Under the pieces are notes generated by a model. It was not told where the DNA came from. It searched no databases and saw nothing but the letters and a program-made list of their open reading frames with translations. From positions 1-12,062 of the forward strand of contig CAKTJM010000050.1 in the NCBI GenBank assembly GCA_934567745.1: 12,062 nucleotides of DNA, in the 5' to 3' direction. The translations under genes were made by a program, and so were the position numbers. Shown here in pieces: positions 184 to 9,876 of the stretch (within the stretch, counting starts at the first letter, position 1; each line of letters opens with the position of its first letter). Origin of the DNA: an uncultured Eubacteriales bacterium (lineage in GTDB: Bacteria > Bacillota > Clostridia > Oscillospirales > Oscillospiraceae).

Positions 184-1248
184 TCACCCTGCCGCCTGTT
201 CCGCGGCGGCGAGCATCCGTTCTGCGAAGATGCCATATCCGCGGTCGGCGTGGTCGATCAGCACATGCGTCACGGCCCCGACCAGTCTGCCGTCCTGTAG
301 GATCGGCGATCCGGACATCCCCTGCACGATGCCGCCCGTCTGCTCCAGCAGGCGCGGATCGGTGATGCGGACCATCAGGTCCCGCCCGTCCGGCGCATCC
401 TGCCAGACCTTGACCAGCTCCGCTGCATACTCCTCCACCCGATCGCCCATGATATTGGCGAGGATGGTGGCCGCACCGGTGTGGACCTGGTCCGGCCGGG
501 CGACCTCCCGGGCCTGCTGCCCCGCGAAGGGGCCGAGGTCGGTCAGCCGTCCGAAGACCCCGCTGCGCGTGTTCGCGTAGAGCGTCCCCAACGGCTGCCC
601 GGACGTGAGCTGCCCGCGCAGCTCGCCGGGGCGGCCGTCCTGGCCCTTCACGATCCCCGCCACAGTGGCGGGCGCGATGGACCCGGCCTGGAGCCGCATG
701 AGCACGGCCGTATCGACGTCGTTGATGCCGTGGCCGAGCGTGGCGAACAGCCCCGTCTGCGGGTCGGCGAAGGTCAGCGTGCCGATCCCGGCCATCGAGT
801 CGCGGATCCACGCCCCGAGCTTATAGGCCCCGTCCGCGCTGCACTTGACCGCGCGGGTGGCGACCTCGTCGGCCGCGTCGCCGCGCAGGACGCGCAGCTG
901 CATCCGTGCCCCGTCGAGGTCCTGCAGGATCTCCTGGACCTGTTCGATGGAGCCGACCTGCTCGTCGTTGATGTGGGTGATGACGTCGCCCTCGCGCAGG
1001 CCGCAGGCCTTGGCGGGGGAGGCAAGCCCGGCCTCGGTGTCGATGTCCGACAGGCCCACCACCAGCACGCCCTCCGAGAAGAGCTTGATGCCCACGGTCT
1101 GTCCCAGCGGGACGACGGTGCGGGCGTGGGCGGCCTGTGCCGGGGCCGTCAGCATCGCGGCGGCCAGCGCCGCGGCGGCGAGGATGAGAAAAAAGCGAGC
1201 CAACCAGTGAAGGACGGTCTCGCTGCGGCGCCCTTTGGCGTCCGGCAT
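184..1248 (-). CDS. spoIVB: SpoIVB sporulation signalling serine peptidase (family S55)
   Basis: The protein is 354 aa from this start. An N-terminal hydrophobic anchor (about residues 14-38) is followed by a PDZ domain (about 55-130) and an S55 peptidase domain. The active-site histidine is in LGHGI (His173) and the nucleophile in GGIVQGMSGSP (Ser312), both matching SpoIVB. In the known pathway SpoIVB is secreted from the forespore into the intermembrane space, cleaves itself and SpoIVFA, and so releases SpoIVFB to process pro-sigma-K. I chose the ATG at 1248 because GGGGTGAT lies 7 nt upstream of it; ATGs at 1296 and 1266 have poorer ribosome binding sites. It is somewhat shorter than the Bacillus protein. 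The gene is divergent from the TSCPD gene and appears monocistronic within the window. It indicates a spore-former. Confidence 0.93.
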   Translation of the reverse strand: MPDAKGRRSETVLHWLARFFLILAAAALAAAMLTAPAQAAHARTVVPLGQTVGIKLFSEGVLVVGLSDIDTEAGLASPAKACGLREGDVITHINDEQVGSIEQVQEILQDLDGARMQLRVLRGDAADEVATRAVKCSADGAYKLGAWIRDSMAGIGTLTFADPQTGLFATLGHGINDVDTAVLMRLQAGSIAPATVAGIVKGQDGRPGELRGQLTSGQPLGTLYANTRSGVFGRLTDLGPFAGQQAREVARPDQVHTGAATILANIMGDRVEEYAAELVKVWQDAPDGRDLMVRITDPRLLEQTGGIVQGMSGSPILQDGRLVGAVTHVLIDHADRGYGIFAERMLAAAEQAAG

Positions 1249-1352
1249 GAGATCACCCCATTCCATGGTGTCTGCGCGGTCGTGCCGCGCAAGCATTACT
1301 ATGGCCGTTTTCCTCGAAAAAAGCCAAGGGAAAGATCCTCAGCGCTTCCTGC

Positions 1353-1416: not shown

Positions 1417-1686
1417 ATGACCATCCAATACAAGACGAAGGGCACCTGCTCCCAGCAGATGAACGTGAAGGTGCAGGACGGCGTCATCGAGGACGTCCAG
1501 ATCATCGGCGGATGCAGCGGCAACACCCAGGGCCTGTGCCGTCTGGTGAAGGGGATGCAAGCCCAGGACGCCATCGATCGCATGGAGGGCATCCGCTGCG
1601 GGAACAAGGCGACCTCCTGTCCCGACCAGCTCGCCAAGGCGCTGAAGATCGCCCTGGCCGAGGAGCAAAAGCGCAAGGACGCCTGA
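1417..1686 (+). CDS. TSCPD-domain small protein (TIGR03905-like)
   Basis: This 89-aa protein begins at an ATG 9 nt after AAGGA. It has the features of the TIGR03905 family: GTCS near the N terminus, GGCSGN (residues 31-36), and the signature TSCPDQLA near residues 66-73. Five cysteines (11, 33, 41, 61, 68) are spread along the chain, which suggests metal binding or redox chemistry. The TSCPD domain is otherwise known from the C-terminal part of some class II ribonucleotide reductases, but the role of the stand-alone form is not known to me. The gene stands alone with its own promoter and terminator. Its last 11 codons, stop codon and the next bases are repeated exactly at 4185-4224, so this 3' end appears to have been a recombination or integration site. 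Confidence 0.9.
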   Translation: MTIQYKTKGTCSQQMNVKVQDGVIEDVQIIGGCSGNTQGLCRLVKGMQAQDAIDRMEGIRCGNKATSCPDQLAKALKIALAEEQKRKDA

Positions 1687-1689
1687 CCG
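1650..1689 (+). repeat. 40-bp direct repeat, copy 1 (3' end of TSCPD gene)
   Basis: These 40 bases are identical, in the same orientation, to 4185-4224. The copy spans the last codons (protein ALAEEQKRKDA), the TGA stop and a few bases after it. The flanks on both sides differ completely between the two copies, so the edges are sharp. This copy keeps the reading frame intact and is followed by the gene's terminator. Confidence 0.95.
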
Positions 1690-1692
1690 CCT

Positions 1693-1725
1693 GAAAGGCC
1701 CTCGACCGTTGGTCGAGGGCCTTTC
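1693..1725 (+). terminator. Terminator between convergent genes
   Basis: A perfect 15-bp stem, GAAAGGCCCTCGACC (1693-1707) with its complement at 1711-1725, closes a 3-nt loop only 6 nt after the TSCPD stop codon. The following bases are pyrimidine-rich (TCATCTGTC) rather than a pure T run. It also faces the 3' end of the convergent membrane-protein gene at 1744, so it may serve both directions. Confidence 0.8.
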
Positions 1726-1743
1726 TCATCTGTCGAAAAACGA

Positions 1744-2196
1744 TCATCCGGTGGGGCCGGGGATCGGGCTGCCGTTATAATAGGTCTTTCCAAAGGGCTT
1801 ATAGTCGAACACGCTGACCACACCGGTCTCGACGGTCGTCAGCTCGATATGGTACGCACCGAGCACGCTGCGCGTCACCCACGCATCCGTCTCCCCTTGG
1901 TCCTCGTCGATGTCCGTGTAGATGATGTGTCCATCCTCTACGCCCCGTATCTTCTCCGGGACGAAGTACATCTTCTGGTCGAGATATACCACGTCTCTCG
2001 CCACGTCGCTCATCGACAGCTGCTCTCCCGTCTCCTCCTGGTACGCCGCGATCAGCTCCTCCGCACAGGCCTGGACCGCGCTGCTCCGCTGCAAGACCAT
2101 GTTCCAAAGAAGGGGGAAGACGAATAGGACGACCACGACACACACCACGAGGAGGGCCACGATCAGACCAACACTGGACCGTTTTCCTTTTTTCAT
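1744..2196 (-). CDS. Small single-pass membrane protein, unknown function
   Basis: The 150-aa product starts MKKGKRSS and has one strongly hydrophobic segment at about residues 9-34, with the charged end preceding it, so a cytoplasmic N terminus and an exposed C-terminal domain are expected. The rest is soluble and rich in acidic residues (for example DIDEDQGETD near residue 96) and ends in a Gly/Pro-rich tail. I do not recognise the family. The ATG at 2196 has GAGGTGA about 8 nt upstream. It is the last gene of the minus-strand block; a hairpin at 2249-2270 separates it from the gene upstream, and I could not find a convincing promoter in the 74 bp between. It may depend on read-through. Confidence 0.75.
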   Translation of the reverse strand: MKKGKRSSVGLIVALLVVCVVVVLFVFPLLWNMVLQRSSAVQACAEELIAAYQEETGEQLSMSDVARDVVYLDQKMYFVPEKIRGVEDGHIIYTDIDEDQGETDAWVTRSVLGAYHIELTTVETGVVSVFDYKPFGKTYYNGSPIPGPTG

Positions 2197-2248
2197 GTTT
2201 CGCTCACCTCATCATCGCAAGATCTCTGGCTGCCATTAAGATAACATG

Positions 2249-2270
2249 GTCCCTGCCAACTGGCAGGGAC
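2249..2270 (-). terminator. Hairpin directly after the small secreted-protein gene
   Basis: GTCCCTGCC (minus strand, 2270-2262) pairs perfectly with GGCAGGGAC (2257-2249) around the loop AGTT. The stem begins immediately after the TAG stop codon at 2271-2273. The bases after it on the minus strand contain T-rich patches but no uninterrupted run, so termination may be partial and feed the membrane-protein gene. Confidence 0.5.
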
Positions 2271-2536
2271 CTATGCTATTGTATTTATCTTATCTTGCAC
2301 AGAAATGGAATCGACCGTCCCATCTGAGAAAGTGCACTGATATGTTTCTTTTCCTTCAGAATCAACAGATGCCACAGAAAGCGTATTCTCGCCTGCACCC
2401 GCCTCCAACAAAATATCCCAATCGGATAAAGCCGAAAGGCTCTCAACATCGGCATTCGTTTGCTCTGGAGAAACGGCTGCAGCAGGAATCGCCATAAGAA
2501 AAACCAGGCTCAGCGTCAACGAAATAAGCTTTTCAC
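2271..2536 (-). pseudogene. Small secreted protein with a frameshift in its signal peptide
   Basis: A very strong ribosome binding site (AAGGAGGTGATT, 2537-2548) leads directly to a GTG at 2536. Reading from it gives MKSLFR and then TGA. One base later the other frame continues as LTLSLVFLMAIPAAAVSPEQ and on to a stop at 2271. Joined, the two pieces make a textbook signal peptide (basic start, hydrophobic core, Ala-x-Ala exit) and a mature acidic domain of about 65 aa containing one cysteine in YQCTFSDGTV. This implies that one base is missing near 2519-2521. The alternative, a TTG start at 2519, would leave the ribosome site about 17 nt too far upstream. I do not recognise the mature protein. 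It has its own promoter at 2740-2768 and a hairpin right after its stop. Confidence 0.6.
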
Positions 2537-2548
2537 AATCACCTCCTT

Positions 2549-2739
2549 ATTTTGCATCGTTCTAGGGAACAAAACACCCAGTCATCACATTTTCTTCCTT
2601 TTTATAGGTACAAAGATGTTCCTCCTGCATTGGACTCGCCCCCTTCCTTTGATTTTTCCGGTTCCGCAGGACATCAAGATACAAACTCCTTTTTATCTCA
2701 AACAGATGAGTTGCTCTTGATATATCCTTCTATGTCCAT
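2549..2739 (-). other. Leader of the small secreted-protein transcript; two tiny ORFs
   Basis: About 190 nt separate the expected transcription start (near 2733) from the ribosome binding site at 2537-2548. On the minus strand the leader holds an ATG ORF of 29 aa (2674 to 2585) that contains ten Lys/Arg and no acidic residue, with GGAG 11 nt upstream, and an overlapping 22-aa ORF in another frame (2630 to 2562, MQEEHLCTYKKEE...), with AAGGAAGGGGG 8 nt upstream. Neither resembles a family I know. They could be leader peptides, a toxin-like or antimicrobial peptide, or chance. No stable RNA family is recognisable. Confidence 0.3.
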
Positions 2740-2768
2740 AATATACCGCAAAGAAAAACATTCGTCAA
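2740..2768 (-). promoter_or_regulatory. Promoter for the small secreted-protein transcript
   Basis: On the minus strand TTGACG (2763-2768) and TATATT (2740-2745) are exactly 17 bp apart, in an AT-rich stretch. It lies about 60 bp past the stop of the secreted-protein gene 2828-3292 and points towards 2536, so the block has at least two transcription units. Confidence 0.6.
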
Positions 2769-2794
2769 TACAGAATTATTTAGAATTAGTTTAA

Positions 2795-2821
2795 CTGCCC
2801 CAGCATCTCTACCGGAGGCAG
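2795..2821. terminator. Weak hairpin after the secreted-protein gene
   Basis: CTGCCCC (2795-2801) pairs with GAGGCAG (2815-2821) with one mismatch, and a TTTTT run follows on the plus strand at 2824-2828. On the minus strand the hairpin is just past the stop codon at 2828, with an AT-rich tail. The loop is 13 nt long, so the structure is modest. It could end the padR transcript. Confidence 0.3.
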
Positions 2822-2827
2822 CCTTTT

Positions 2828-3292
2828 TCAAAAACTGACTTCCCCATTTTTATTGCAAGAAAGCTTTAGGTCTACACCCAGCGTAGGATATGACAGTTTT
2901 GACACGCTCCCACTCAGGACGATAGTACTGCCACTCGAAGAAAACGTTCTCTGAGTAAAGCTCCATCCACTATATGTGTCCGACCGTGATACTCTCTTTG
3001 AGACGACACTTGATGTACTTCCATCATATCGAAACGTCCCTGTGACCGCAATGACCGCTATCACGTCATTGCCTCGTTTATATTCTTTCTGATTCGTTAC
3101 CGTTTTCGTGCTGGCAGCACGAAGTGCCACCTCTTCCCTGATCGTCTGTGTTCCCGTGATCCCATCATCGAGCTCCTGCACGAACACTGTTTCCACACAG
3201 TTCTTCTCTCTGATATCCACCGCACCGCAAACAGGCGCAAGGATACCTATAACGAAAGCACTGCAAATCATGAGCGAAAAAAACTTTTTCAT
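2828..3292 (-). CDS. Secreted protein of unknown function
   Basis: The product has 154 aa. Residues 1-24 are a clear signal peptide (MKKFFSLMICSAF..., with an exit near PVCGA), and the start is set by AAAGGAAAGTGA about 8 nt before the ATG at 3292. The mature part is rich in Ser and Thr, carries VAVTGTFRYDGSTSS (from about residue 79) and closes with DLKLSCNKNGEVSF. That layout, a TGTF-x-Y-G-S strand followed by alternating beta-like segments and a final LSC-x-NG, resembles a group of small secreted Clostridia proteins without known function that I recall only in outline. It follows the HAAS-type gene by 29 bp, so it is probably part of the padR operon and its expression would follow that regulator. 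Whether it stays attached to the envelope is unclear: no sortase or lipobox motif is seen. Confidence 0.75.
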   Translation of the reverse strand: MKKFFSLMICSAFVIGILAPVCGAVDIREKNCVETVFVQELDDGITGTQTIREEVALRAASTKTVTNQKEYKRGNDVIAVIAVTGTFRYDGSTSSVVSKRVSRSDTYSGWSFTQRTFSSSGSTIVLSGSVSKLSYPTLGVDLKLSCNKNGEVSF

Positions 3293-3321
3293 GTCGTCAC
3301 TTTCCTTTCTTTCGTCACTCG

Positions 3322-3678
3322 TCACTCCTCGATGATGATCGTCTGCGTCACCTCGACCTCGAAATGCGCGAACCATATCACGTAGATGCTCCAGGCCACG
3401 GCGAGCGCGACCACGACCCCCACTACGATCCGTATCAGCTTCTTCCTTCGCGCATAGCGAACGCGTTCGGCCCGCGTCAGCTTTTCCGCCAGCATCGCCA
3501 CCATCTCTTCCGGCGTCCCGAACGCCTCGGCCAGCTCTTCGTAGCATGCGTCCGGACGCTCCTCCAGATACGCCTGCAACGAAGCGAGGAATGGCCGCAT
3601 CAGCTCTTCGCGCTCCTCACGACAGCATGGGAGCCCGGCACGCACCTACCGAACGTACTGCTTCACCTGCTCATCCAT
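3322..3678 (-). pseudogene. HAAS-type membrane protein gene with in-frame amber codon 11
   Basis: Translation from ATG 3678 gives MDEQVKQYVR, then TAG (3648-3646), then without change of frame VRAGLPCCREEREELM and on to a stop at 3322, 118 codons in all before the stop. The joined protein has a HAAS-like helical domain (about residues 1-70, including YEELAEAFGTPEEMV) followed by one membrane helix (about 83-105) and a short beta-like tail. Such proteins are commonly encoded next to PadR regulators and are thought to act as their signalling or anti-regulator partners. The first ten residues match the usual start of the family, so TAG probably replaced a sense codon such as CAG. Restart at the adjacent GTG (3645) or at ATG 3600 could still yield a shortened protein, as could amber readthrough. 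The start overlaps the end of padR by 16 bp. Confidence 0.65.
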
Positions 3679-4055
3679 GTTATCTTGTCCCCCCTTTCCA
3701 CCTCTTTGAGCATCAGATCGATCGCGGCGGTATAGCGGTGATACGCCTCGCGCAGCTCCGCCAGATACTCCCGTCCGGCCTCCGTGATGGAATAGTACTG
3801 CCGGATCCTCGCCTCCGGCCCCTCCCGCCGCTTCACCTCGTCCACATAGGGCGGATTGGCCTCCGCCAGACGCAGGATCACCGCGTAGGGCCGCCGAATC
3901 AGGATGGTATGGCCGCTCCGCTCCACGATGGCGTCGGACAGCTCCCCGATGTAATGGTCCCGCTCGGAGAGCAGGAGCAGGACGAGCATCTCCGTGAAAG
4001 CCTTTTTCATATTTTCCTCGAAGCCCTCTGCGCTGCGAGACCGGTTCCTTGCCAT
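3663..4055 (-). CDS. PadR-family transcriptional regulator
   Basis: The 130-aa protein has a winged-helix domain: helix FTEMLVLLLLSERDHYIGEL (about 20-39), a recognition region around 50-65, and the wing motif RIRQYYSITEAGREYL (83-98), which is the hallmark of PadR proteins. A C-terminal helix (about 99-121) would give the dimer contact of the short PadR class. The ATG at 4055 is chosen because AAAGGAGGG lies about 10 nt upstream; an upstream ATG at 4130 falls inside the promoter. PadR proteins are dimeric repressors that often control their own operon and respond to small molecules or, through a partner membrane protein, to the envelope state. Here the partner gene overlaps its 3' end, followed by a secreted protein. 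The ligand cannot be told from sequence. Confidence 0.87.
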   Translation of the reverse strand: MARNRSRSAEGFEENMKKAFTEMLVLLLLSERDHYIGELSDAIVERSGHTILIRRPYAVILRLAEANPPYVDEVKRREGPEARIRQYYSITEAGREYLAELREAYHRYTAAIDLMLKEVERGDKITWMSR

Positions 4056-4090
4056 TTGGACCGGCCCTCCTTTCATCCTTCGATCGATGT

Positions 4091-4103
4091 CTGATATGGT
4101 CAG
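4091..4103. promoter_or_regulatory. Candidate PadR operator
   Basis: CTGATATGGTCAG is an inverted repeat (CTGA, 5-nt spacer, TCAG) that overlaps the -10 box and the expected start site of the padR transcript. Position and symmetry suit autorepression by a dimeric PadR protein, but the half-sites are only 4 bp and the match could be chance. Confidence 0.3.
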
Positions 4104-4130
4104 TATAACAAGAGCGGCGCGAATCGTCAA
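4102..4130 (-). promoter_or_regulatory. Promoter of the padR operon
   Basis: On the minus strand TTGACG (4125-4130) and TATACT (4102-4107) are 17 bp apart, each one base from consensus. The transcript would start near 4095 and run through padR, the HAAS-type gene and the secreted-protein gene. Confidence 0.7.
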
Positions 4131-4184
4131 TGCACTCTGCGTCTCCCGTCACGGTGGATCGCCCTCTTTTTTCAGGCCCTTTTC

Positions 4185-4224
4185 CGCCCTGGCCGAGGAG
4201 CAAAAGCGCAAGGACGCCTGACCG
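4185..4224 (+). repeat. 40-bp direct repeat, copy 2 (orphan)
   Basis: This is an exact copy of 1650-1689, in the same orientation, outside any gene. It contains the last codons and stop of the TSCPD gene but no upstream part of that gene and no terminator. It sits between the padR promoter and the gcv promoter, and its right edge may be the original junction with the gcv region. Confidence 0.95.
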
Positions 4225-4271: not shown

Positions 4272-4300
4272 TTGACATCCGGCCCCCTGGTTATTATAAT
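4272..4300 (+). promoter_or_regulatory. Consensus promoter of the gcv operon
   Basis: TTGACA (4272-4277) and TATAAT (4295-4300) are both perfect matches and are 17 bp apart, the ideal sigma-A arrangement. The start site is expected near 4307, giving a leader of about 200 nt before gcvT. So strong a promoter would need repression, attenuation or a high constant demand. Confidence 0.9.
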
Positions 4301-4403
4301 GTGCCTAGATCTAACACATCCCAGACACCGCGCGGCCCGGCCGCGGACACCTCCCCGGCATGAGGAACGACCGGTCCCACCGGCCGCAGGAGCTTCCGGA
4401 GGA

Positions 4404-4439
4404 GCAGACCGAACAGAGAGAAAGGGCTGTTCTGTCTGC
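4404..4439 (+). promoter_or_regulatory. Long hairpin in the gcvT leader, possible attenuator
   Basis: GCAGACCGAACAG (4404-4416) pairs with CTGTTCTGTCTGC (4427-4439), with one central C-T mismatch, around a 10-nt loop AGAGAAAGGG, and is followed by CTTTTGT. The T run is short for a terminator. Small GC-rich stems occur upstream (for example CCGGT/ACCGG near 4370). I looked for the conserved core of the glycine riboswitch in this leader and did not find it. It may be an attenuator, a diverged or different sensor, or a stabilising 5' structure. Confidence 0.45.
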
Positions 4440-4506
4440 CTTTTGTCACGCCGAGACGCGCCTGTCACCAGCTGATCCCACATCAACGAAAAGGAGCGGA
4501 ACGCTT

Positions 4507-5592
4507 ATGGAACGCAAGACCCCCCTCTATGACGTGCATGTCGCCGAAGGCGGCAAGATCGTCCCCTTCGCGGGCTACCTGCTGCCCGTGCAGTACGGTA
4601 CCGGCGTCATCAAGGAGCACATGGCCGTCCGGAAGGAGTGCGGCCTCTTCGATGTCTCCCACATGGGTGAGATCCTCTTCACCGGCCCCACCGCCCTGGC
4701 CACCCTCAACCACCTGCTCACCAACGACTACTCCAACATGCCCCTGAACAAGGTCCGCTACGGCGTCATGTGCACCCCCGAGGGCGGCACCATCGACGAC
4801 CTGGTCGTCTACAAGTTCGGGGAGGAGGCCTACCTCGTCGTCGTCAACGCCTCCAACCGCGAGAAGGACTACGCCCACATGGTCCAGAACCTCCTCGACG
4901 GCACCAAGGCCGAGGACATCTCCGACTCCGTGGCGCAGCTCGCCCTCCAGGGCCCCAAGGCCCCCGCGATCCTCAAGACCCTGCTGCCCGAGGACCAGAT
5001 CCCCAAGGGCTACTACACCGCCCTGCCCCACGTCATGATCGACGGCATGGACTGCATGATCTCCCGCACCGGCTACACCGGCGAGCTGGGCTATGAGATC
5101 TACACCGCCAAGGAGAACGCCGAGAAGCTGTGGAAGACCCTCCGCCGCGCCGGTGAGGACTTCGGTCTGATCCCCTGCGGTCTGGGCGCGCGCGACACCC
5201 TGCGTCTGGAGGCCGCCATGCCCCTGTACGGCCATGAGATGGACGAGACCGTCACCCCGCTCGAGGCCGACCTCGGCTTCGGCGTGAAGCTGTCCAAGCC
5301 CGAGTTCATCGGCCGCGACGCCCTCGTCGCCGCCGGCGATCCCAAGCGCGTGCGCGTGGGCCTCGTCGTCACCGGCCGCGGCATCGCCCGTGAGCATCAG
5401 GACGTCTTCATCGGCGACGAGAAGATCGGCGCCACCACCTCCGGCACCTTCGCCCCGCTGCTGCAGAAGGCCATCGCCATGGCGCTGGTCGATGCCAAGC
5501 ACGCCGCCGTCGGCACCGCCGTCGAGATCGACGTCCGCGGCCGCCGCATCCCCGCCGAGATCGTCCCCCTGCCCTTCTACAAGAGAGGCTGA
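4507..5592 (+). CDS. gcvT: Glycine cleavage system T protein (aminomethyltransferase)
   Basis: GcvT takes the aminomethyl group from the lipoyl arm of GcvH, releases ammonia and passes the carbon to tetrahydrofolate as 5,10-methylene-THF. The 361-aa length is normal. Landmarks are the N-terminal [23 protein letters not shown] (46-55), the folate-site loop [10 protein letters not shown] with Asp97/Asp98, [34 protein letters not shown] and a C-terminal barrel domain ending near LPFYKRG. The ATG at 4507 follows AAGGAGCGGA with good spacing. The same frame stays open upstream to an ATG at 4360, but that has no ribosome site and would add a non-homologous 49 residues, so I reject it. It is the first gene of the operon and is separated from gcvH by 77 bp. 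Confidence 0.97.
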
Positions 5593-8810: not shown

Positions 8811-9794
8811 ATGATCGAGACCCTTTCCGCGATCCGCACCCATGAGACCGACCCGCGCCACAACCTGGCGCTGGAGGAGTACCTGCTGCGGGCCGTCCGG
8901 CCCGGCCAGTGCATCCTCTACCTCTGGCAGAACCAGCGGACGGTCGTCATCGGGCGCAACCAGGACGCCGAGAACGAGTGCCGCATCCAGGACCTGGAGG
9001 CGGACGGCGGACACCTCGTCCGCCGTCTCTCCGGCGGCGGGGCGGTGTACCACGACCTCGGGAACCTGAACTTCACCTTCCTCGTCTGCCATGAGGACTA
9101 CGACGCGGCCCGGCAGACGGAGACCATCCTGCGCGCCGTCCAGAAGGTCGGCATCCGCGGGGAGCGCAACGGCCGCAACGACCTGACCGTGGACGGCTGC
9201 AAGTTCTCCGGCCACGCCTACTACCGCACGGGCGACCAGTGCTATCACCACGGCACCCTCATGGTGGCCGTGGACATGGCCCCGCTGGAGCGCTACCTCA
9301 ACGTCTCGCCGCTGAAGCTGCAGGCGAAGGGCGTGCAGTCGGTCCGCTCGCGGGTGACGAACCTGCGCGACCACCGGCCCGACCTGAGCATCGACGAGCT
9401 GGCCGACGCCCTCATCGCGGCGTTCGGCGAGGCCTACGATCTGCCCGTCCGGACCCTCCGCGAGGAGGACCTGGACCAGGCGCACCTGGCCGAGGGCATC
9501 CGGCGCTTCTCCGATCCCGCGTGGATCTACGGCGAACGCCGCCCGCTCCAGGAGAGCCGCGAGGGCCGCTACGACTGGGGCACGGTCCGCGTGGACTGGA
9601 CCCCGGCGGACGGGCGCATCGCCGAGGCGGCGCTGTGGTCCGACGGACTAGACGCCGACTTCCTCAGCCGCGTCCCGGCGCTGCTGACGGGCTGCCCGCT
9701 CACGGCCGTGGCCATCGCCCAGGCCCTGCGCACCGACCCGGAGAGCACCGACGAGCTGGTGGCCGGTCTGGTCGATCTGCTGACCGCGCACTGA
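8811..9794 (+). CDS. lplA: Lipoate-protein ligase A
   Basis: LplA activates free lipoate with ATP to lipoyl-AMP and transfers it to the acceptor lysine of carrier proteins, here most likely Lys64 of GcvH. The 327-aa protein has the catalytic domain with RRLSGGGAVYHDLGNLNFTF (from residue 71) and CKFSGHAYY, in which Lys131 corresponds to the essential lysine, then HHGTLMV. Residues from about 235 form the C-terminal accessory domain (ESREGRYDWG, LWSDGLDADFL), so this is the two-domain type able to do both half-reactions. AGGAGG overlaps the gcvPB stop, 4 nt before the ATG. The fit with the operon is strong: no lipoate synthase gene is in the window, which suggests scavenged lipoate is used. 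Confidence 0.95.
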   Translation: MIETLSAIRTHETDPRHNLALEEYLLRAVRPGQCILYLWQNQRTVVIGRNQDAENECRIQDLEADGGHLVRRLSGGGAVYHDLGNLNFTFLVCHEDYDAARQTETILRAVQKVGIRGERNGRNDLTVDGCKFSGHAYYRTGDQCYHHGTLMVAVDMAPLERYLNVSPLKLQAKGVQSVRSRVTNLRDHRPDLSIDELADALIAAFGEAYDLPVRTLREEDLDQAHLAEGIRRFSDPAWIYGERRPLQESREGRYDWGTVRVDWTPADGRIAEAALWSDGLDADFLSRVPALLTGCPLTAVAIAQALRTDPESTDELVAGLVDLLTAH

Positions 9795-9817
9795 CCCCAT
9801 CCAACATCAAAACGAAC

Positions 9818-9853
9818 GAGGCCCTGCCCACCATCTCAATGGGCAGGGTCCTC
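9818..9853 (+). promoter_or_regulatory. Hairpin between lplA and lpdA
   Basis: GAGG CCCTGCCCA (9818-9830) pairs with TGGGCAGGG T CCTC (9840-9853) with one bulged T, around a 9-nt loop. It lies between the lplA stop and the lpdA ribosome binding site and lacks a T run, so a processing or stability element, or partial attenuation, is more likely than full termination. Confidence 0.45.
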
Positions 9854-9876
9854 GTCCTATGAAGGAGCGAACCACC

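What the first reader, a model, noticed from the sequence alone, without database searches (positions are those of the whole stretch)
1650..4224. Exact 40-bp direct repeats bracket an AT-richer gene block at the 3' end of the TSCPD gene
Positions 1650-1689 and 4185-4224 are identical over 40 bases with unrelated flanks. One copy completes the TSCPD gene, the other is orphaned next to the gcv promoter. Everything between is on the minus strand and less GC-rich than its surroundings. Elements that integrate at gene 3' ends leave exactly this pattern, but no integrase is present, so this could be a small dependent or decayed element that uses the end of a TSCPD gene as its attachment site.
Basis: partly seen in the sequence, partly recalled or inferred. 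Interest (0 to 1): 0.75.

Follow-up and report, generated by a model that had tools for sequence, protein, structure and literature searches.

The report
Small gene cassette duplicating TSCPD's end
A 2.5-kb block of accessory regulator and secreted-protein genes sits between two identical 40-base copies of the end of a bacterial gene, which looks like a small passenger insertion without its own recombination enzyme, although a local copying accident is not excluded.

Summary
Confirmed: 1650-1689 and 4185-4224 are identical over 40 bases; the left copy ends an Evtepia-like TSCPD gene. Between them, on the minus strand, lie a PadR regulator, a DUF6120-like membrane protein with an in-frame stop, and three small membrane/secreted proteins. 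For: the repeat ends 3 nt after the stop codon; block GC3 is 0.40-0.82 against 0.89-0.96 outside; no relative tested has these genes here. Against: no recombinase or core inverted repeat, no second TSCPD end in 71 loci, no empty site seen; PadR clusters of this sort are ordinary chromosomal genes elsewhere.

Controls turned up a clearer case at the neighbouring gene spoIVB. In three genus genomes, spoIVB 3' ends recur behind different accessory genes. Most remnants follow a conserved 27-bp motif; 12 of 15 further motif-bearing Oscillospirales genomes also show a spoIVB end behind it. No recombinase was found in the cargo scanned. The window lacks the motif, so this supports the reading by analogy only. 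A rearrangement scar remains the main rival.

The parts
184..1296 (-). spoIVB (sporulation peptidase), divergent neighbour of TSCPD
   Evidence: PF05580 8.7e-75, TIGR02860 340 bits; the pair is seen together in 11 of 14 TSCPD-bearing genus genomes
1417..1686 (+). TSCPD-domain gene (TIGR03905), complete
   Evidence: PF12637 1.1e-30, TIGR03905 above cut-off
1650..1689 (+). left 40-bp copy: last 11 codons and stop of TSCPD plus 3 nt
1694..1724 (.). perfect 14-bp hairpin, A-run and T-run at its two ends (bidirectional terminator by sequence)
   Evidence: read from the sequence, arms checked; no terminator scan was run
1744..2196 (-). i150: 150-aa protein with an N-terminal membrane anchor (by eye); distant relatives in Evtepia genomes and two Evtepia phages
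   Evidence: no family hit above cut-off
2271..2519 (-). i91: small secreted-type protein whose frame does not join the ribosome-binding site and GTG upstream (apparent frameshift at the start)
   Evidence: read from sequence; GC3 0.40
2828..3292 (-). i154: secreted-type protein, relatives behind PadR genes in two other genomes (L160, L167)
   Evidence: tblastn 1.4e-6 and 1.4e-16
3322..3678 (-). DUF6120/HAAS-like membrane protein with an in-frame TAG at 3646-3648
   Evidence: DUF6120 1.7e-3, below cut-off; tblastn alignments run across the TAG, 4e-17 in L157; start and TAG checked
3663..4055 (-). PadR-type regulator
   Evidence: PF03551 1.1e-4 (below cut-off), TIGR03433 9.6e-7 (below cut-off); 98% cluster P0129 of 16 sequences
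4102..4130 (-). sigma-70-like promoter of the PadR operon (TTGACG-17-TATACT)
   Evidence: read from sequence, checked; no promoter scan was run
4185..4224 (+). right, orphan 40-bp copy
4272..4300 (+). gcv promoter (TTGACA-17-TATAAT), conserved in relatives
   Evidence: alignment with five relatives
4507..5592 (+). gcvT, first gene of the glycine-cleavage operon
   Evidence: PF01571 2e-89

Best explanation
The block is a small passenger insertion at the 3' end of the TSCPD gene. A DNA segment carrying the PadR/DUF6120/secreted-protein genes entered at the stop codon, and the 40-bp end of the gene was duplicated at its borders. The copy joined to the block (left) now completes TSCPD; the old gene end (right) is stranded before gcv. 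The segment has no recombinase, so one acting in trans, or one since lost, must have done it (cis-mobilizable-like state). Shown: repeat, borders, gene content, no recombinase in the window, no such genes at TSCPD in the relatives tested. Inferred: that it inserted, the direction (left copy brought in, right copy native), and any recombinase.
For: The exact 40-bp repeat ends 3 nt after the TSCPD stop and has no flanking homology. A random breakpoint falls within 3 nt after one of about 14 stop codons of this window in about 0.5% of cases (own arithmetic; post hoc). GC3 of the block departs from the rest. The junctions are private: none of the genus's TSCPD or gcv loci tested shows them, and the only matches of block DNA in 16 genus genomes are 95 bases of PadR in G015 and 35 bases in G019, both on contigs other than that genome's TSCPD. 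The right copy also has the Q and D codons of the window's TSCPD tail, where the 93% relative P0001 has K and E, so the duplication looks younger than that split. Neighbouring spoIVB shows the same event type with conserved element ends.
Against: No recombinase in the window. No empty TSCPD-gcv site in any relative tested. No TSCPD-end duplication in 71 other loci. No inverted-repeat core (194 of 300 shuffles as good). 40 bp absent from viral contigs (21-base core also); no credible match of a 65-base query in phages (best E 0.1) or plasmids (E 0.4 for the best-ranked); block DNA matches no phage or plasmid. No spoIVB-type motif in the window. A terminator within 2-9 nt of the TSCPD stop is seen in 4 of 10 genus loci, so the left copy could be native. 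Exact direct repeats of 40 bp or more are not rare: 13 of 140 loci, window included. PadR/DUF6120 pairs are ordinary chromosomal neighbours elsewhere, once upstream of gcvT (L011, by reading).
Confidence: 0.48

Rival explanations
1. Rearrangement scar. TSCPD, its terminator and perhaps i150 are native neighbours; a chromosomal rearrangement brought gcv (and PadR) next to them, and a 40-bp piece of the nearby TSCPD end was copied into the junction by template switching during repair. The right copy is then a filler and not an attachment site.
For: TSCPD and gcv are not neighbours in any close relative tested (a distant one, L057, has a 37% TSCPD about 4 kb upstream of gcvT on the other strand), and the gene after TSCPD varies within the genus. 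A terminator within 2-9 nt of the TSCPD stop occurs in 4 of 10 genus loci (G003, G009, G010, G016). No recombinase or core motif. i150 relatives at 91-93% exist, close to the 93% of TSCPD P0001, as if both were old residents. A PadR/DUF6120-like pair sits upstream of gcvT in G012 (L011).
Against: Does not explain why the copied piece ends 3 nt after a stop codon. No microhomology at either junction by eye. Atypical GC3 across the block.
Confidence: 0.37
2. Decayed larger integrative element: an IME or prophage with its own integrase entered at TSCPD and lost everything but accessory genes.
For: In-frame TAG in the DUF6120-like gene, frameshifted start of i91, AT-rich stretch 2520-2827 without a gene. 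i150 relatives lie in two Evtepia phages at 33-34%.
Against: No recombinase, phage or transfer remnant: best PHROGs hit of five block proteins E 0.017. PHROGs was not run on translated fragments of the stretch without a gene. No related element at TSCPD in 71 loci. i150 relatives in G001 and G015 sit in plain chromosomal settings by reading.
Confidence: 0.1
3. Assembly artefact joining unrelated pieces through the 40 bp.
For: The source is unnamed and no genome of the species is held. The junctions could not be checked in reads.
Against: A false join would still need the 40 bp to exist twice. Near-identical PadR (98% cluster, 16 sequences, contigs to 12,182 bases) and i150 (98% cluster, 11 sequences) recur in other assemblies, though their junctions were not seen.
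Confidence: 0.05

Closest known systems
Cis-mobilizable elements (CIMEs) and tandem accretion at gene 3' ends (PMC5704250, passages seen; Pavlovic 2004 cited there, not read)
   Same: Direct repeats of a gene 3' end bracket genes without integration or transfer functions.
   Different: [quoted passage not shown] no such relative was found for TSCPD.
Insertion with long target duplication (PMC3031569 and PMC4978471, passages seen; Nobusato 2000 cited there, not read)
   Same: Genes inserted with a long, variable target duplication.
   Different: Described there for restriction-modification genes by comparing related genomes; here no R-M cargo and no empty relative.
Dehalococcoides ssrA genomic islands (PMC3146451, passages seen)
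   Same: Tandem islands bounded by 20-bp copies of a gene end, with a 15-bp motif just before each repeat: very like the spoIVB arrays found here.
   Different: Sixteen of those islands carry a serine-recombinase integration module; none was found in the spoIVB cargo scanned, and the TSCPD case has no motif.

Membership tests
Cis-mobilizable element (CIME) | flanking attL/attR-like direct repeats, one restoring the target gene | tested here: met
Cis-mobilizable element (CIME) | no integration or transfer genes of its own | tested here: met
   five block proteins scanned with Pfam, NCBIfam, PADLOC, PHROGs; none found
Cis-mobilizable element (CIME) | related element with a recombinase at the same site | tested here: not met
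   0 of 71 TSCPD loci show an end duplication; recombinase genes themselves were not scanned in the 71
Cis-mobilizable element (CIME) | recombinase-type core (inverted repeat) in the shared sequence | tested here: not met
   194 of 300 shuffles as good
Cis-mobilizable element (CIME) | can be excised or mobilized | not testable with these tools
   needs cells or reads
Insertion with long target duplication | long direct duplication of target at both borders | tested here: met
   40 bp exact
Insertion with long target duplication | empty, single-copy target in a close relative | tested here: inconclusive
   no genome of the species held; no TSCPD-gcv neighbour in the genus loci tested
spoIVB 3'-end cassette arrays (found here) | 27-bp right-end motif before the duplicated gene end | tested here: not met
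   0 matches to its first 22 bases in the window at up to 3 mismatches

The most novel reading that the evidence does not exclude
The divergent spoIVB/TSCPD pair is a landing site where accessory operons without a recombinase accumulate behind duplicated gene ends: an integron-like gene-capture locus of gut Oscillospirales, run by a recombinase acting in trans. The spoIVB side is a cassette array with a conserved end motif, and the window's TSCPD block is the mirror-image version on the other gene.
Probability: 0.15. Interest if true: 0.8.

Novelty: new member of a known kind. Interest (0 to 1): 0.47.

Why it matters
If it is an insertion, TSCPD joins the genes whose 3' ends serve as attachment sites, and it shows how regulator/secreted-protein operons may move in gut Clostridia without carrying a recombinase. 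The spoIVB arrays found on the way make the question testable: a conserved 27-bp end, a fixed crossover codon and several gene ends per locus allow a search for the enzyme that moves them.

Tried and rejected
Dispersed repeat: rejected. A TSCPD-tail pattern with up to 2 mismatches finds the TSCPD gene itself in 6 of 16 genus genomes (G001, G002, G003, G004, G008, G015); the other 14 sites listed each have two mismatches and are scattered (one reversed-control hit, in G015).

Degraded second TSCPD gene: rejected, no homology upstream of the right copy.

Phage, plasmid or viral origin of the block: block DNA has no match. A 65-base query around the left copy gives only weak partial hits, 116 phage and 64 plasmid records at E up to 10, none covering 80% of it. 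PadR protein gave one 31% plasmid hit and no relative in viral contigs; TSCPD none there. i150 has two weak phage relatives and relatives in 3 of 400 family genomes; I read those of G001 and G015.

Defence system: PADLOC hits only at E 0.0025 or weaker.

TSCPD C-terminal remnants at protein level: best E 8.6e-4 among 71 loci, on the opposite strand and unconvincing.

Repeat control: 140 loci, 2.41 Mb; exact repeats of at least 24 bp at least 400 bases apart occur in 20 loci including the window, of 40 bp or more in 13. Of these I read L065, L189 and L255 and L123; the others were not examined.

Absence in print: searches found 0 papers for their term sets, a looser search, listed 10 of 20,058 papers, none of the ten containing spoIVB.
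Full report
Observation. The window holds spoIVB (minus), TSCPD (plus), a minus-strand block, and a gcvT-gcvH-gcvPA-gcvPB-lplA-lpd operon (gcvH, the two gcvP genes and lpd were named by reading the translations). The 40-base repeat is exact and alone, and homology stops at its borders. The left copy ends TSCPD: its last 11 codons, stop and 3 nt. The right copy is an orphan 47 bases before the -35 box of gcv.

Where it comes from. GcvT is 86% identical to Candidatus Evtepia faecigallinarum and 85% to Evtepia gabavorous; the best TSCPD among the genomes searched is 77% (G015). No genome of the species is held. TSCPD is found in 14 of 16 genomes of the genus; in 11 of these 14 spoIVB is beside it in the DNA fetched, and in G011 and G017 spoIVB lies on another contig. 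The next gene after TSCPD changes. Upstream of gcv, five of five relatives aligned carry the conserved promoter and a glycine riboswitch (RF00504; two aptamers above the cut-off in L001, L002 and L003, one in L004 and L047). The window has no Rfam hit there.

The block. From the right: a PadR promoter and gene, a DUF6120/HAAS-like membrane protein with an in-frame TAG across which homologues align, a secreted-type protein (i154), a small secreted-type protein with a broken start (i91), and a membrane-anchored protein (i150), then a bidirectional hairpin against TSCPD. By tblastn, PadR with a DUF6120-like neighbour recurs in six other places (L115/L117, L157, L159, L160, L161, L166), PadR with an i154 relative in two (L160, L167), all three only in L160; a further pair in G012 was seen by reading. 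So the cargo is an ordinary accessory cluster. GC3 is 0.40-0.82 against 0.89-0.96 outside. Near-identical PadR and i150 recur in other assemblies.

Is TSCPD's end an attachment site? In 71 TSCPD loci (downstream DNA from 80 bases to 19.6 kb) no second copy of the gene end was found; chance matches reached 12-17 bases, and a protein-level repeat found nothing convincing. The 40 bp and a 21-base core are absent from viral contigs. A 65-base query gives no credible phage or plasmid match. Block DNA matches no phage or plasmid. No inverted-repeat core stands out.

Age and direction. The TSCPD tail of relative P0001 (93%) ends KKRKEA where the window has QKRKDA. The right copy has the window's version, so the duplication is probably younger than that split, or was homogenised. 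Which copy is native is open: a terminator-like hairpin follows TSCPD in 4 of 10 genus loci and 25 of 69 loci overall, which allows the left copy to be native.

The neighbouring gene. A repeat control over 140 loci led to spoIVB in G009. A search with the spoIVB end alone, made without using the motif, finds extra ends in 3 of 16 genus genomes: one in G009, one in G014, two in G016 (the second at E 0.115); four more weak matches in other places are at E 0.4-0.8 and probably chance. In these three the last 39 or so codons recur 0.8-1.0 kb behind the gene, beyond different accessory genes. The three long remnants start at the same codons (the SGSP motif) and are preceded by TGTTGTCCNTAATGACRATCACYCGTG. 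That motif (up to 2 mismatches) occurs in 9 of 400 family genomes and a longer form (up to 3) in 8 of 394 order genomes, G009 being in both; reversed controls are zero in the rows shown. In the 18 loci fetched or held, 19 motif copies were found: 15 are followed by a spoIVB end that tblastn detects (two of them truncated, in L314 and L329, and one frameshifted, in L310), L308 by only the first codons, and L311 (8768), L312 (1185) and L331 by none. By genome that is 12 of the 15 beyond the genus set. Conversely, of 20 stranded ends I count, 15 have the motif and 5 do not (L311, third ends of L125 and L313, first and third of L326); 15 of the 18 loci were chosen by the motif, so this share is biased upward. 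A full spoIVB and a stranded end lie on one fetched stretch in seven genomes: G009, G014, G016, G106, G165, G187, G580. Three gene ends, the gene's own included where seen, occur in L125, L313 and L326.

Cargo. Twenty proteins were scanned. Thirteen lie between gene ends or before a motif: an Lrp/AsnC regulator, an M20 peptidase, an aminotransferase, an AraC regulator, a glycyl-radical enzyme and its activase (six, L326); an SDR enzyme, a VanW-like protein and a protein without a hit (three, L313); a protein without a hit (L126); a cyclase (L314); a nucleotidyltransferase and a MerR/TipAS regulator (two, L311). The other seven (L325, L327, L329, L330) lie just beyond the last gene end seen and may not be cargo. 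None of the twenty is a recombinase. One serine-recombinase seed finds nothing in these loci; tyrosine recombinases were checked only through those Pfam scans. The G009 and G016 cargo (DUF1275-like; DUF2975-like with an XRE regulator) is named by eye only. In G014 the stranded end resembles the genus's usual end while the intact gene carries a different one, as expected when the insert supplies a new 3' end. In 400 family genomes, 340 match the spoIVB end and 23 have at least two matches by my count; nine of these 23 have weak best matches and may be paralogues, and most of the 23 were not checked.

Weighing. The spoIVB arrays suggest that gene-end capture of cassettes without a recombinase happens at this very gene pair. 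The window's block shares the geometry but not the motif, and the best rival, a rearrangement with a 40-bp filler, explains the unusual TSCPD-gcv adjacency as well. I favour insertion modestly because the repeat ends at the stop codon and the block's codon use is atypical.

Known kinds. CIMEs are elements that lost integration and transfer genes but kept attL and attR (PMC5704250, passages). Restriction-modification genes insert with long, variable target duplications (PMC3031569, passages; PMC4978471, passages). Dehalococcoides ssrA islands form tandem arrays with a 15-bp motif before each gene-end repeat (PMC3146451, passages). The window's block works like these; membership in the CIME class is not shown because no partner recombinase or related element was found.

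Noticed in passing
L123, L125, L126, L307-L314, L325-L331: Arrays of accessory genes behind spoIVB: stranded spoIVB 3' ends, long ones starting at the SGSP codons, a conserved 27-bp motif before 15 of 20, up to three gene ends per locus, no recombinase found among the proteins scanned.
   Followed up: partly
window 4301-4506: The gcv leader has no glycine riboswitch hit, whereas all five relatives tested carry one or two (RF00504).
   Followed up: partly
window 3646-3648 and about 2519-2546: In-frame TAG in the DUF6120-like gene and an apparent frameshift at the start of i91: the block looks partly decayed.
   Followed up: partly
L065:6253-6356 and 9764-9867: What reads like a gene 3' end recurs 3.5 kb apart (100 of 104 bases) in a Phascolarctobacterium locus, around what reads like a DNA-methylase gene (both by eye).
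   Followed up: no
L249:660-2084: A serine recombinase next to what reads like a sigma-factor fragment, as in skin-type elements (by eye).
   Followed up: no
L263:2639-2971, L264:1282-1614: Relatives (33-34%) of the block's i150 protein in two Evtepia phages, annotated hypothetical.
   Followed up: partly
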